Below, one piece after another: positions 3,111 to 16,870 of a DNA stretch of 17,529 bases (its first letter is position 1; the number at the start of each line of letters is the position of its first letter). A model generated the notes under the pieces. That model saw only the letters and a program-made list of their open reading frames with translations. It ran no database searches and was not told the DNA's origin. Source of the stretch: a bacterium. GTDB lineage: Bacteria; UBA9089; CG2-30-40-21; SBAY01. The stretch lies in the NCBI GenBank assembly GCA_040757115.1, contig JBFLYA010000072.1:1-17529 (forward strand), written 5' to 3'. The position numbers were made by a program, and so were the translations under genes.

Positions 3111-3355
3111 GTAACCGTTCACCGTAGAGACACAGAGACGCAGAGAAAAAATTAAAATCTATTCACCAGAGACAGAAATTTCCTTTTTTTGTGCATTTCG
3201 GGTCTTTCCCTGTTTATTAATCTTTTAATACTTACTTTTGACTAACTGTTTTTAAGCCTTTTTAAACACCGAAAAACGCGAAAAACACGAAAAAAAAGAT
3301 ATTTTCCTCTCTGTTTCTCTGCGTCTCTGCGGTAAAGGATTACCTAAACGGTTAC
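3111..3355. mobile_element. MITE-like element A, TIR GTAACCGTTCA
   Basis: This 245-bp non-coding element starts gtaaccgttcaccg and ends with the inverse (aaacggttac). Inside each end are long complementary arms of the cagagacgcagag type, so it could fold into an imperfect hairpin. It is nearly the same sequence as element B (4950-5633) without B's insertion. No target-site duplication is visible (flanks gaaaatct and ctttttcc). Its right end overlaps the glycosyltransferase 3' end and provides that gene's last three codons and stop. It fills the whole gap between the glycosyltransferase and the mutS leader. Confidence 0.85.
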
Positions 3356-4480
3356 CTTTTTCCTGATTCCTAAGATACTCAAAAAGAATGATGAAAATAT
3401 GACTTGAATGCCAATGACTATAAAAGTTAAAGCGACTAAGCCAGTTCGCACCTCACTTAACGGACCAAAATTGCCTGCTATCCATCGAATTAAGATATAA
3501 ACATTTATCCCTAATCCTAATAAGGTAACTAATGCACCAATAATTAACCCTCTTTCTAAATTGAAATAATGTGAAAACCATTCGATAAATCTATCGCTTT
3601 CTTCAAAATGTTCAGTTAGAGAGTAGCTTTTAGCATACAATCCAAGATTAACAATTTGAAAGCCCAGAATAGCCAACAGGCTACCTAACACCATATAATG
3701 AATATCAAAATGTAGATTTCCTATTTTGAGTGGTCCCGGGAGTAAGACAAGTAAAAAGACTAATCCAATAAAGAATAGGATTATACCTGGTATTAAAAAT
3801 AAATAGGTAGGGGAATACAACAGCATAAACCTGAGATGTCGCCAGCCATCTTTAAATGAGGCAAGTTTTGATTCTCCTTCTCGTGGATGATAGGTGATGG
3901 GTAGTTCTTTAATTTTAAGTTTAAGTTTCAATGCCTTAATGACCATTTCAGAGGCAAATTCCATACCGATAGTTTTAAGGTTCATTTTTTTATATGCCTC
4001 TTTAGTTACCGCTCGCATACCACAATGAGCATCCGATATTTTGCCATGAAAAAATAAGTTTAAAATCCCTGTAAGTATTGGATTACCGATATATCGATGT
4101 AACCAGGGCATAGCCCCGGTTAAGATTTTACCTTTAAATCGACTACCAATACAAAACTCATATCCTTCTCTGAGCGGGATTAAAAATTTACCTATTTCTT
4201 GCAAATCATAGGTATTATCGGCGTCAGCCATAATGATATATTTTCCATTAGCCTCTTCCAAACCCATCAGATAGGCACTACCATAACCTTTTATAGGTTG
4301 ATATACTACCTTAGCACCAAGTGATTTAGCGATATTATCTGAATTATCCGTAGAGCCGTTATCAACGACAATCACCTCTCCTTCTACACCTTCATCTTTA
4401 AAGGATTTTAGTGCCTTTTTAATACAAATTCCGATAGTATCTTTCTCATTCAAGCAGGGCATAATTACAGATACATCCAT
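3344..4480 (-). CDS. Membrane-anchored GT2 glycosyltransferase (polyprenyl-phosphate sugar transferase type)
   Basis: A family 2 glycosyltransferase of the dolichol-phosphate-mannose-synthase-like type, which moves a sugar from a nucleotide sugar to a polyprenyl phosphate at the inner membrane. The N-terminal Rossmann-like domain opens with VSVIMPCLNEKDTI (residues 3-16), VIVVDNGSTDNS follows at 37-47, and the metal-binding DxD is D86-A-D88 in IMADADNTYD. CGMRAVTK near 153-160 is the usual acceptor-side motif. Four hydrophobic helices follow (about 225-248, 262-285, 310-333 and 346-370). The last codons (V-T-V-stop) are encoded by the terminal repeat of element A, so the original C-terminus was probably replaced, but only after a natural-looking end (SILGIRKK). 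A perfect-consensus promoter lies about 300 bp upstream. The donor sugar cannot be told from sequence. Confidence 0.9.
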   Translation of the reverse strand: MDVSVIMPCLNEKDTIGICIKKALKSFKDEGVEGEVIVVDNGSTDNSDNIAKSLGAKVVYQPIKGYGSAYLMGLEEANGKYIIMADADNTYDLQEIGKFLIPLREGYEFCIGSRFKGKILTGAMPWLHRYIGNPILTGILNLFFHGKISDAHCGMRAVTKEAYKKMNLKTIGMEFASEMVIKALKLKLKIKELPITYHPREGESKLASFKDGWRHLRFMLLYSPTYLFLIPGIILFFIGLVFLLVLLPGPLKIGNLHFDIHYMVLGSLLAILGFQIVNLGLYAKSYSLTEHFEESDRFIEWFSHYFNLERGLIIGALVTLLGLGINVYILIRWIAGNFGPLSEVRTGLVALTFIVIGIQVIFSSFFLSILGIRKKVTV

Positions 4481-4805: not shown

Positions 4806-5230
4806 TTTAAAAAATTTTCTGAAGTAAGAGGTTAGTAAAGTGAGAGGATTAATCTGATTTTCAAAAGAACCACGGAAATACAGAAATTATGAAGCACGGA
4901 AATTTGATAGAGTAATTCTATGAATAGAAAGGGATGTCCATCAATTTTTGTAACCGTTCACCGCAGAGATACAGAGACGCAGAGAAAAAATTAAAATTTA
5001 TTCACCAGAGACAGAAATTTCCTTTTTTTGTGTGCATTTCGGGTCTTTCGTTGTTTATTAATCTTTTAATACTTACTTTTGACTAACTGTTTTTAAGCCT
5101 TTTTAAACACCGAAAAACGCGAAAAACACGAAAAAAAAGGTAACCGTTCAGCCACAGAGGCACAGAGTTCACAGAGAATTAGAGAAATTAGCTATAAATG
5201 GACACGAATTAACCTGTGCCATTCGATAAA

Positions 5231-5295
5231 TGTAGTGCGAACCTTTAGGTTCGTTTTCCTGCTTGCCAGAAGCGAGGCTAAAGTCTCGCACTACA
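5231..5295. repeat. Small inverted-repeat unit F (tgtagtgcga ends)
   Basis: A 65-bp unit beginning tgtagtgcga and ending tcgcactaca, with complementary subterminal sequence (cctttaggttcg against cgaggctaaag). A 51-bp copy in inverse orientation occurs at 15439-15489 within C'. No target duplication is seen. Confidence 0.7.
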
Positions 5296-5303
5296 AATCT
5301 TTT

Positions 5304-5481
5304 CCACCTGTGCGATTAGACTAATTCATCGCAGAGACACAAAGGAAAAATATAATGTCAAATGTAAAATAGGAAATGAAAAATGGGAAATTTTAGTACT
5401 TCGCAAGATTCATTACCTTTCAGTTATACACTTTCATTTTTCATTTTACATTATCCATTTTACATTTAACCGCACAGGTCG
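5304..5481. mobile_element. MITE-like element E, TIR CSACCTGTGCG, 8-bp target duplication
   Basis: A 178-bp element inside C. Its left end is ccacctgtgcgatta and its right end read inversely is cgacctgtgcggtta. It is flanked by exact copies of AATCTTTT (5296-5303 and 5482-5489). The interior is a near-palindrome built on aaatgtaaaatagg-type sequence and its complement. A copy split by element G is at 14913-15430. The terminal CGACCTGTG is shared with element M. Confidence 0.88.
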
Positions 5482-5629
5482 AATCTTTTTATTATTCGTG
5501 TTCATTCGTGGTTATATATTTCCTCTGTGTTCTCTGTGACTCTGTGGCTATATCCTGAACGGTTACAAAAAAAGATATTTTCCTCTCTGCGAACTCTTGC
5601 GTCTCTGCGGTAAAGGATTACCTGAACTG

Positions 5630-7246
5630 TTACTCTTCCTTACTTTCCTTTAAACTTGCCCCAATAAAATCTCTAAATAATGGATGAGGATTGGTCGGTT
5701 TAGATTTGAATTCAGGATGAAATTGAGTGGCAACAAACCACGGGTGGTTTTTTAACTCAATTATCTCAACTAAATTATCATCTAACGATAGCCCACTAAA
5801 AATAACATTATGTTTTAATAGTATTTTTCGATATTTATTATTTACCTCATATCTATGTCTGTGTCGTTCGGAGATTATCTTTTCACCATAGGCTTTATGA
5901 GCAAAAGAACCGTGTCCAAGTTTAGCCGGATATCGTCCCAAACGCATTGTGCCACCCTTCTCTTTTGTGTTTTTTTGTATTTCCATTAAATCGATGACCG
6001 GATGCGGTGTATTGGGGTCAATCTCTGAGCTATTGGCATTTTTTAGTCCAGCAAGATTTCTTGCTAATTCTATCACCGCACATTGTAACCCTAAACATAT
6101 TCCCAAAAATGGTATTTTATTCTTTCTCGCATAAGAAACTGCTTCAATCTTTCCCTCAATCCCTCGATATCCAAAACCTCCAGGAACTAATATCCCATTG
6201 ACATCTTTAAATGCTTTATCTATCTTTTTTTGGGTGTTAAGTTCTTCTGAATCAACCCATTTAATATGAACCTTCACTTGATGAGGAACACCACCATGAA
6301 TTAGTGCCTCAACAATGCTTTTGTAGGCATCTTGAAGCTGGATATATTTTCCAACCACAGCGATATTAACCGACGAATCGGGACTTTTAATAATATTGAT
6401 TACCTTATTCCATTGTTCTTCTTGAGGGATGGATTCATAAGGCGGGGAAAGATTCAATAATTTTATAATAATCTTATCCAGCCCCTGTTTTTTAAATATT
6501 AATGGGACCTCATAAACACTACTGACATCATAGGCATCAATTATTGCCTCTTTATCCACATCGCAAAATAAGGCAATTTTATCCTTGAGTTCTGATAGTA
6601 GGGGTTTTTGCGTTCGACATAGAATAATATCCGGAGCAATACCAATCTCACGAAGTTTCATAACTGAATGTTGAGTAGGTTTGGTTTTAATTTCGTTTGA
6701 GACACTTATAAATGGGACTAAAGTAAGGTGGATATAAAGGACATTTTCTTTGCCAACATCTTTACGGAATTGTCTAATTGCCTCCAAAAAAGGTAATCCT
6801 TCAAAATCCCCAACTGTTCCACCAATTTCACCAATAACTACATCCACATCATCTTTGGATAGTTTTAATATTCCCGCTTTAATCTCGTCAGTGATATGTG
6901 GAATTACCTGGACAGTCTTGCCAAGATAATCGCCCTTTCTTTCTTTAGTTATGACTGAATAATAAACCATTCCGGCAGTGATATTGCTTTCTTTATTGAT
7001 AATTGAGTTAGTAAATCGCTCATAATGTCCTAAATCAAGGTCTGTTTCTGCTCCATCATCCGTAACATAGACCTCACCATGTTGATAAGGGCTCATTGTG
7101 CCGGGGTCAACATTTATGTATGGGTCAAGTTTTTGCATTCGGATTTTTAGTCCTTTGTTTTCTAATATATGTCCAATAGATGCGGCGGCAATGCCTTTAC
7201 CTAAAGATGAGACAACACCACCGGTGATAAAGATAAATTTTGTCAT
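5630..7246 (-). CDS. pyrG: CTP synthase
   Basis: Converts UTP, ATP and glutamine to CTP in the cytoplasm. At 538 residues it has family length. The N-terminal amidoligase domain (about 1-267) shows [17 protein letters not shown] at 9-25, [28 protein letters not shown] at 51-78 (start M51, end F78) and [11 protein letters not shown] at 140-150. The C-terminal class I glutamine amidotransferase domain shows PGGFGYRG at 355-362, nucleophile C384 in LGICLGLQ, and H510 and E512 in QFHPEF, a complete triad. It starts 16 bp after kdsB with a good ribosome binding site (gggaagagg), so it is co-transcribed; its CTP product is the KdsB substrate. Its stop TAA lies in the GTAAC end of element B, so the element has probably reset the gene's 3' end. 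Confidence 0.98.
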
Positions 7247-14267: not shown

Positions 14268-14640
14268 GTTCTGCAAAATAGGATTTGAGGGAGACAACAA
14301 ATAAATATCAAATATCAAATATTAAATATCAAATATAAATATCAAAATGCAAAATTACAAATCAAATTTCAAAGAGGAAGTAGCAGGGTTTCTCAAAGAG
14401 TTGGAGGAATTTGGTAATATCTTTGCTTCAAGTATTTTAACGCTGAAAGGAAAGAGATAATTTTACTGAACTTTGGCAAATTTGCAAATTCTCTGAAAAA
14501 CTTAAAACTAAAAGCGTAAAACCCAAAACCGTTGATAGTTTAGAGTTGATAGTTTAGAGTTGATAGTTGATAGTTGATAGTTGAAGGACTATAAACCATA
14601 AACCATAAACTATAAACGAGTTTTGCATTTTGCTCTTTGG
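14268..14640. mobile_element. Repeat element I2, inverse copy of I1
   Basis: Begins gttctgcaaaa at 14268 and follows I1 in inverse orientation: gagggagacaacaaataaa, the aatatc-rich part, the four-helix-bundle remnant, then gttgatagttgatag-type repeats and ataaaccataaac runs, and finally a cgagttttgcattttg stretch. The far end has lost the terminal repeat seen in I1, so the right boundary near 14640 is approximate. It lies inside J. Confidence 0.7.
14347..14460 (+). pseudogene. Shortened four-helix-bundle gene remnant in I2
   Basis: An unbroken 37-codon frame: MQNYKSNF, then directly EEVAGFLKELEE and NIFASSILTLKGKR, stop TAA at 14458-14460. Compared with the I1 copy it has lost the first helix as well, leaving the start of the gene fused in frame to the last helix. 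It is too short to form the bundle. Whether it is translated is unknown. Confidence 0.6.
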
Positions 14641-14912: not shown

Positions 14913-14972
14913 CCACCTGTGCGATTAGACTAATTCATCGCAGAGACGCAAAGGAAAAATAAATGTGAAATG

Positions 14973-15298
14973 GTAACTATTCACCCTGTAGGAAAGTAGG
15001 AGAGTAGGGAAGTAGGAAAGGGAAAGAAAATGAAAATGAATGAGAAGTTAGATGATTTAGACAACTTGTAGTATGGCAAAAAAACCATCATTTAGTGATA
15101 AGAACATACGAAATAACCAAAAACTTCCCCACTGAAGAAAAATATGGATTGGTGCAACAGATGTGCACAGCGGCTGTTTCTATTTCAGCAAATATTGCAG
15201 ATCAATTAAGAGTAAAATAGTATGAAGTATTTTCCCCCTTTCCTACTTCCTACTTCCTACTTCCTGCTTGCTTGGTATTTGGTATGCTGAATAGTTAC
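14973..15298. mobile_element. MITE-like element G, TIR GTAACTATTCA, 8-bp target duplication
   Basis: A 326-bp element with a perfect 11-bp inverted repeat at its ends. Exact GTGAAATG copies flank it at 14965-14972 and 15299-15306. In the uninterrupted element E the corresponding site occurs once (gtcaaatg, one base changed). Subterminal parts are ggaaagtaggag repeats and the complementary tcctacttcc repeats. The centre is a four-helix-bundle gene remnant. Confidence 0.92.
15030..15220 (+). pseudogene. Frameshifted N-terminal half of a four-helix-bundle protein gene in G
   Basis: From ATG 15030 the frame reads MKMNEKLDDLDNL and then meets a TAG. From 15071 a second frame reads VWQKNHHLVIRTYEITKNF, then PTEEKYGLVQQM and AAVSISANIADQLRVK to a stop at 15218-15220. 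Joined by one shift these form the N-terminal helices of the S23/four-helix-bundle family (DL-x-VWQK-x-H-x-L, FP-x-EE-x-YGL, AA-V-SI-x-ANIA are its usual marks). The C-terminal half is absent. It belongs to a different subgroup from the I1/I2 remnants, which start FKKRLYNFTLRLIEF. Confidence 0.78.
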
Positions 15299-15430
15299 GT
15301 GAAATGTAAAATAGGAAATGAAAAATGGGAAATTTTAGTACTTCGCAAGACTCATTACCTTTCAGTTATACATTTTCATTGGACATTTCTCATTTTACAT
15401 TATCCATTTTACATTTAACCGCACAGGTCG

Positions 15431-15580
15431 AAAAGATTTGTAGTGCGAGACTTTAGCCTCGCTTCTGGCAAGCAATGGTTCGCACTACATTTATCGAATG
15501 TCACAGGTTAATTCGTGTCCATTTGTGGCTAATTTCTCTAATTCTCTGTGAACTATGTGCCTCTGTGGCTGAACGGTTAC
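15431..15580. mobile_element. Partial inverse copy of element C (C')
   Basis: Read on the minus strand from 15580, this matches the left 164 bp of element C: gtaaccgttcagccacag, the cacagag arm, then aattaacctgtg, unit F, and the actacaaatctttt junction where E is attached. The other half of C is missing; beyond E' the sequence is unrelated. Its terminal tgaacggttac abuts the transposase fragment at 15581. Confidence 0.85.
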
Positions 15581-16187: not shown

Positions 16188-16275
16188 AAATATTCCCATA
16201 ATGGGCAAAAGTGAAGGTAATATCCAAAATGCACCAAAAAGCAAATTCCTATCAGTTTATGGAGGTGAGTTTATA

Positions 16276-16542
16276 ATGGGAATTAGAAGTGTTGAAGCAA
16301 TAAATCCATTAGAAGGAGAATTTCCACTTATTTTGGAAAAGGGTTGCCCTAAGGCTTTTGTTGTAGAGGTAAAGGTCTTTCAAATGCTCAAGATACTCGT
16401 AGATAATCTTCTTGAAAAAGAGCAAGAACCAGAGGATGTTTTACTATCAACTTCTAAGGCATTCCAAAGGCTTTTAAATTCTGTTGAAAAAGAAGATAGT
16501 AAGCCATCTTCGGATTGGAGAAAAGAGCTTTATGAGATTTGA
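16276..16542 (+). CDS. Probable antitoxin of a RelE/ParE-type pair
   Basis: An 88-residue protein not recognised by family. An in-frame ATG exists at 16201, but the ATG at 16276 has the strong ribosome binding site ggaggtga 8-15 bp upstream, and the earlier ATG lies at the edge of the duplicated promoter sequence, so the later start is chosen. The sequence starts MGIRSVEAINPLEGEF, has a helix-forming middle (FVVEVKVFQMLKILVDNLLEKE) that here spans about residues 28-49, and a charged C-terminus ending DWRKELYEI. That layout (short N-terminal part, helical middle, toxin-binding charged tail) fits a type II antitoxin. Its stop codon overlaps the start of the toxin gene by 11 bp. The assignment rests mainly on position. 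Confidence 0.6.
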   Translation: MGIRSVEAINPLEGEFPLILEKGCPKAFVVEVKVFQMLKILVDNLLEKEQEPEDVLLSTSKAFQRLLNSVEKEDSKPSSDWRKELYEI

Positions 16543-16870
16543 GATTCGGTTTTCAAAACCATTTAAGCGTAGTATTCACCATCTGGAAAAGAAATATCAG
16601 CACATTCGGTCTGATTTGGAGTCAGCAATTGAAGTGTTGTTAATTTACCCTGATTTAGGAAAAGTGATACCTAATACGCAGGGAGTGCGAAAACTTCGTG
16701 TTAAAAGCAGCGATATGGTTAAAGGTAAGCGTGGGGGCTTTCGCTTGTTGTATTTACTTGATAGGGAAAAAAGTTGTATTACTTTGTTATTTGTTTATGC
16801 TAAGCCAGAGAAAAAAGACATAAGCCCAAAAGAGATTGAGTCAGTTATAGAAGAAGCCTTAAGGGAATAA
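16532..16870 (+). CDS. RelE/ParE-family toxin
   Basis: A 112-residue protein of the RelE/ParE superfamily, small toxins that cut mRNA on the ribosome or poison gyrase. It begins FEIRFSKPFKRSIHHLEKK after the initiator (first strand and helical pair), then SAIEVLLIYPDLGKVIPNT, the strand VRKLRVKS, the hallmark KGKRGGFRLLYLLD at 64-77, and ITLLFVYAKPEKKDIS at 83-98. The start at 16532 overlaps the antitoxin stop; a further upstream ATG at 16484 lies in the antitoxin gene and would add 16 residues unlike the family. The GKRGGFR with a following YAKSE-like segment points to an mRNA interferase more than to ParE, but the target is not decided. The pair follows a transposase remnant and lies in repeat-rich sequence, typical for mobile TA modules. 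Confidence 0.82.
   Translation: MRFEIRFSKPFKRSIHHLEKKYQHIRSDLESAIEVLLIYPDLGKVIPNTQGVRKLRVKSSDMVKGKRGGFRLLYLLDREKSCITLLFVYAKPEKKDISPKEIESVIEEALRE

What the first reader, a model, noticed from the sequence alone, without database searches (positions are those of the whole stretch)
5132..5574. Element C inserted in element B with an 8-bp duplication; element A is the natural empty site
Elements A and B are near-identical. B is split at exactly one point by a 427-bp unit with inverse GTAACCGTTCA ends. AAAAAAAG stands on both sides of it, while A has it once in the same context. This shows directly that the GTAACYRTTCA units transpose and duplicate 8 bp.
Basis: seen in the sequence. Interest (0 to 1): 0.75.

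Follow-up and report, generated by a model that had tools for sequence, protein, structure and literature searches.

The report
Nested IS66-type miniature transposons (MITEs)
A short non-coding jumping element (a MITE) really did land inside another MITE here, duplicating exactly 8 bases; it belongs to a very abundant family, spread through its bacterial phylum and most likely moved by IS66-type (ISBst12-group) transposases, so it is a clear example of a known kind of thing.

Summary
Confirmed. Element C (5140-5566, 427 bp) splits element B (4950-5633) at one point. AAAAAAAG stands on both sides (5132-5139, 5567-5574) and occurs once in the paralogous unsplit copy A (3111-3355). In the 44% of the genome fetched, 38 of 107 inverse GTAACYRTTCA pairs have exact 8-bp flanking repeats (0.45 expected by shuffling) and none has 9. 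Eleven independent nested insertions have paralogous empty sites, with 8 the commonest overlap in each. These are MITEs: about 1,065 ends in 4.32 Mb (22 for the control pattern), enriched across the phylum. G007, in the same order, is Candidatus Desantisbacteria CG2_30_40_21. The mobiliser is most likely a single-ORF IS66 (ISBst12-group) transposase: a broken tnpC copy in this genome has exact GTAACCGTTCA ends, and an Omnitrophota relative has the same ends with an 8-bp duplication. C is itself composite: a 241-bp core carrying a second, unrelated MITE (D, 5304-5481) with its own 8-bp duplication. New member of a known kind. Left open: about 60% of pairs lack any duplication, and the elements cluster at gene 3' ends, sometimes supplying the stop codon.

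The parts
3111..3355 (.). Element A: MITE copy without insertion; paralogous empty site. Right end mutated (TAAACGGTTAC)
   Evidence: folds as a near-complete hairpin, -75.3 kcal/mol, z -8.0
3291..3298 (+). Single AAAAAAAG in A (empty target site)
4950..5139 (.). Element B, left part
   Evidence: alignment with A
5575..5633 (.). Element B, right part
   Evidence: alignment with A
5132..5139 (+). Left copy of the 8-bp target duplication AAAAAAAG
5567..5574 (+). Right copy of the 8-bp target duplication AAAAAAAG
5140..5566 (.). Element C, 427-bp MITE (241-bp core plus D) inserted in B; ends GTAACCGTTCA / TGAACGGTTAC
   Evidence: hairpin -159.8 kcal/mol, z -12
5140..5150 (+). Left terminal repeat of C
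5556..5566 (-). Right terminal repeat of C
5304..5481 (.). Element D: second MITE family (ends C[CG]ACCTGTGCG) inside C, target duplication AATCTTTT at 5296-5303 and 5482-5489
   Evidence: the 242-bp D-free core occurs elsewhere, e.g. G000:C23:6100-6341
14973..15298 (.). Another member (326 bp, ends GTAACTATTCA, duplication GTGAAATG) inserted in a D copy (14913-15430)
5630..7246 (-). CTP synthase gene; its TAA stop is supplied by the GTAA end of element B
3344..4480 (-). Glycosyltransferase-like gene; last codons (VTV) and TAG stop lie in or at the right end of element A

Best explanation
C is a non-autonomous miniature inverted-repeat element (MITE) that transposed into an older MITE copy, B, duplicating the 8-bp target AAAAAAAG. 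It was moved in trans by a DDE transposase of the IS66 family, single-ORF ISBst12 group, that recognises GTAAC[CT][AG]TTCA ends. Shown: the insertion, the exact 8-bp duplication here and genome-wide, the shared ends with IS66 tnpC elements, and an 8-bp duplication on an IS66 relative with those ends. Inferred: that this transposase family, acting in trans, moved C. Likely order of events: D entered the C core, the C+D composite spread as a unit (the same D site is present in another copy), and a composite inserted in B.
For: Insertion and duplication. Independent empty sites: 11 nested elements, 8 being the commonest overlap in each. Same in related genomes: exact 8-bp repeats in 5 of 9 pairs in G001 and 3 of 10 in G008. 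Mobiliser: tnpC element L029:893-2455 in this genome has perfect GTAACCGTTCA ends. IS66 elements in other species of the phylum have GTAACCGTTCA (L117), GTAACTATTCA (L118) or GTAACTACTCA (L116) ends. Omnitrophota L137, TnpC 77% identical to L117, has GTAACCGTTCAC ends and duplication AATTCTTT. In G008, L219 is a 256-bp remnant with one GTAACCGTTCA and one CTAACTGTTCA end that still holds the TnpC C-terminus, a link between IS and MITE. Published ISBst12-group element ISDge4 has ends GTGACTACTCAGCA/GTAACTGCTCAGCA and an 8-bp repeat (PMC12898284); 8-bp repeats for IS66 also in PMC11946415.
Against: 64 of 107 pairs have flanks no more alike than random. The only near full-length tnpC in this genome has two internal stops, and the four tnpC elements with both ends found in the phylum (L029, L116, L117, L118) show no 8-bp duplication. 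Several MITE-rich genomes have no PF03050 match: G008, G013, G015. MITE interiors were not shown to derive from tnpC elements, apart from remnant L219.
Confidence: 0.9

Rival explanations
1. The MITEs are moved by another, unrelated transposase that also makes 8-bp duplications, and the match to IS66 ends is coincidence or convergence.
For: Some MITE-rich genomes have no recognisable intact IS66 transposase. The second family D also makes 8-bp duplications with different ends.
Against: Exact 11-bp ends on independent tnpC elements in this genome, in other families of the phylum, and in other phyla; GTAA ends and 8-bp repeats are IS66 traits. Exact-duplication pairs of 700-5000 bp revealed no other transposase.
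Confidence: 0.07
2. A lost a C-like unit (precise excision or deletion) and B keeps the original state.
For: A and B alone cannot tell insertion from precise loss.
Against: Other copies of the host element also lack C at that site, with an overlap of 8 in four of them. C recurs elsewhere in unrelated contexts.
Confidence: 0.02
3. Assembly artefact: repeats joined wrongly in a metagenome-assembled genome.
For: 462-contig draft; repeats of 240-430 bp exceed short-read length.
Against: A wrong join would not create exact 8-bp duplications at 11 different nested sites, nor the same signal in two other genomes.
Confidence: 0.01

Closest known systems
IS66 family, ISBst12 group (e.g. ISDge4 of Deinococcus geothermalis)
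   Same: GTRAC...CTCA-type ends, 8-bp direct repeats, single tnpC ORF in the putative autonomous partner
   Different: The elements here are mostly 100-650 bp and non-coding; TTCA rather than CTCA in most ends
Bacterial MITEs such as Correia, Chunjie and ERIC
   Same: Short, non-coding, intergenic, inverse ends, direct repeats, tens to hundreds of copies
   Different: Ends and duplication length match IS66; about 530 copies estimated here from end counts, near the top of the range quoted in the review (ERIC 711 in Photorhabdus)
Classical IS66 (tnpA-tnpB-tnpC)
   Same: GTAA terminus, 8-bp repeats, DDE TnpC
   Different: Classical ends start GTAAGCG; only single-ORF tnpC elements were found with the ends seen here

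Membership tests
MITE | Short and non-coding | tested here: met
   No ORF of 60 aa or more lies within A, B or C; paired lengths 59-659 bp, mode 200-250
MITE | Terminal inverse repeats | tested here: met
   GTAACYRTTCA inverse pairs
MITE | Target-site duplication | tested here: met
   Exactly 8 bp in 38 of 107 pairs against 0.45 expected
MITE | Shares ends with an autonomous element | tested here: met
   tnpC elements L029, L117, L118, L137
MITE | Moved in trans by that transposase | not testable with these tools
   Needs an experiment
IS66 family, ISBst12 group (putative mobiliser) | Single tnpC with IS66 DDE domain | tested here: met
   PF03050 in L029 (two internal stops), L116 and L117; D, D and E motifs visible in the L029/L117 alignment
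IS66 family, ISBst12 group (putative mobiliser) | GTAA/GTGA terminus and 8-bp duplication | tested here: met
   L137 element with AATTCTTT on both sides; the elements within the phylum have the terminus but lack duplications
IS66 family (element C itself as an IS) | Encodes a transposase | tested here: not met
   C is non-coding: IS66-related MITE, not an IS66 element
Classical IS66 | Inverse repeats starting GTAAGCG | tested here: not met
   Ends are GTAACYRTTCA

The most novel reading that the evidence does not exclude
In this lineage the MITEs have become functional 3'-end modules: hairpin elements retained just after, or supplying, gene stop codons, where they may serve as transcription terminators, and they outlive their transposase across a phylum.
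Probability: 0.2. Interest if true: 0.5.

Novelty: new member of a known kind. Interest (0 to 1): 0.36.

Why it matters
It gives sequence-level proof of transposition, with empty sites, for one of the denser bacterial MITE families, in an uncultured phylum without genetics. It links the family to a specific transposase group (IS66/ISBst12) whose mechanism is poorly characterised. Searches of the held papers found no description of IS66-derived MITEs, though most subscription papers are not held. The nests allow relative dating of families.

Tried and rejected
Reciprocal swap of flanks between duplication-less elements (homologous recombination): no reciprocal pair and only 3 single matches among 64 elements, with under half of the genome held. 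Wrong boundaries as the reason for missing duplications: outer flanks of the CCACGAAG subfamily are unrelated right up to GTAAC, so the ends are correct. Another transposase inside longer pairs with exact duplications: only 2 such pairs of 700-5000 bp, neither with a convincing transposase. Known RNA families in the window: none. Orthologous empty site in G001: the DNA search with the neighbouring gene found no match.

Full report
What is there. B (4950-5633) and A (3111-3355) are two copies of one element, alike along their length apart from a 2-base indel, a few substitutions and a short divergent patch. B is interrupted once, by C (5140-5566, 427 bp, perfect GTAACCGTTCA inverse ends). AAAAAAAG flanks C on both sides; A has it once.

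More than chance. The motif GTAACYRTTCA occurs 525 + 540 times in the 4.32-Mb genome, against 9 + 13 for the same pattern read backwards. I fetched 1.91 Mb (window included). Among 107 adjacent inverse pairs of 1 kb or less, 38 have identical 8-mers outside; shuffled flanks give 0.45. Identical 9-mers: none. Positions -1 to -8 each match in about 60 of 107 pairs, falling to 6 at -9. The duplication is therefore exactly 8 bp. Targets are A+T-rich, with C favoured first and A then T in the two halves.

Empty sites. For each pair I matched the two flanks to the rest of the sequence. Twelve elements had places where both flanks meet. In 11 of them, all with exact duplications and including C and window 14973-15298, the commonest overlap is 8. 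The twelfth has no duplication. A is thus one of several paralogous empty sites for C.

C is composite. Whole-genome matches to C show stand-alone 242-bp cores in which C positions 1-164 and 343-427 adjoin with an 8-base overlap. The piece between is D (5304-5481), ends C[CG]ACCTGTGCG, duplication AATCTTTT. D is a second MITE family with its own copies; 6 of 15 end pairs have exact 8-bp repeats. D sits at the same core position in another copy (L068:17744-18163), so C+D appears to have spread as a unit. The finding is a three-level nest: D in C in B.

The mobiliser. A PF03050 (IS66 transposase) copy in the same genome lies between perfect GTAACCGTTCA ends, as a 1,563-bp element (L029:893-2455), but has two internal stops. 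Other species of the phylum have IS66 tnpC elements with GTAACCGTTCA, GTAACTATTCA or GTAACTACTCA ends. TnpC relatives in other phyla share GTAACCGTTCAC ends, and an Omnitrophota copy (L137) has the exact 8-bp duplication AATTCTTT. An internally deleted 256-bp element in G008, with one GTAACCGTTCA and one CTAACTGTTCA end, still holds the TnpC C-terminus (L219). Published ISBst12-group and IS66 elements have similar termini and 8-bp repeats (PMC12898284; PMC11946415; IS66 ends GTAACCGTCCGGGCA in PMC12888890).

Where it lives. Ends are enriched in most genomes of the phylum (up to 1,074 in G001 and 717 in G008) but not in the genomes outside it that were searched as relatives. The match list of G007 (same order) is the same as that of the genome of L170, Candidatus Desantisbacteria bacterium CG2_30_40_21, so the window belongs to that phylum. 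An Omnitrophica genome (G047) also has 22 + 22 ends, often as inverse pairs about 127 bp long, so the family is not confined to one phylum.

Open points. First, 64 of 107 pairs have essentially random flanks, with hardly any intermediates; one long-ended subfamily (CCACGAAG at both ends) shows no duplication in any pair. Age with homogenisation between copies, or chimeric pairs, are possible; a recombination swap test found nothing. Second, ends avoid genes (16 of 414 deep in ORFs against 64% of random positions) and cluster at gene 3' ends: 32 lie 0-9 bp after a stop against 2 at the 5' side, and 15 supply the TAA stop themselves (simple ORF calling; any insertion in that frame would also give such a stop). 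Elements at 3' ends carry duplications less often (5 of 31 against 33 of 76, Fisher p = 0.008), which hints at retention rather than target choice, but this was tested after the fact.

Verdict. The observation and the interpretation hold. It is a clear, well-supported case of a known kind: IS66/ISBst12-type MITEs, unusually numerous.

Noticed in passing
window 5304-5481 and 14913-15430: Second MITE family (D), ends C[CG]ACCTGTGCG, mostly 156-184 bp, 8-bp duplications; transposase not identified.
   Followed up: partly
window 5630-5632, 3344-3346; genome-wide: MITE ends supply gene stop codons (15 TAA cases in 1.91 Mb) and cluster 0-9 bp after stops.
   Followed up: partly
genome-wide, e.g. L055:2687-2954, L051:9905-10172: Subfamily with long near-perfect inverse ends GTAACTATTCACCACGAAG... 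shows no target duplications, although two copies are 98% alike.
   Followed up: partly
window 14913-15580: A second nest: a 326-bp member inside a D copy, which adjoins part of a C-type core (15416-15580).
   Followed up: partly
window 16201-16870: Small gene pair, the second weakly RelE/ParE-like: possible toxin-antitoxin pair.
   Followed up: no
window 14280-14340 and 14535-14620: Short-period simple repeats (AAATATCAAAT..., TTGATAGTTGATAG...) near the nested elements.
   Followed up: no
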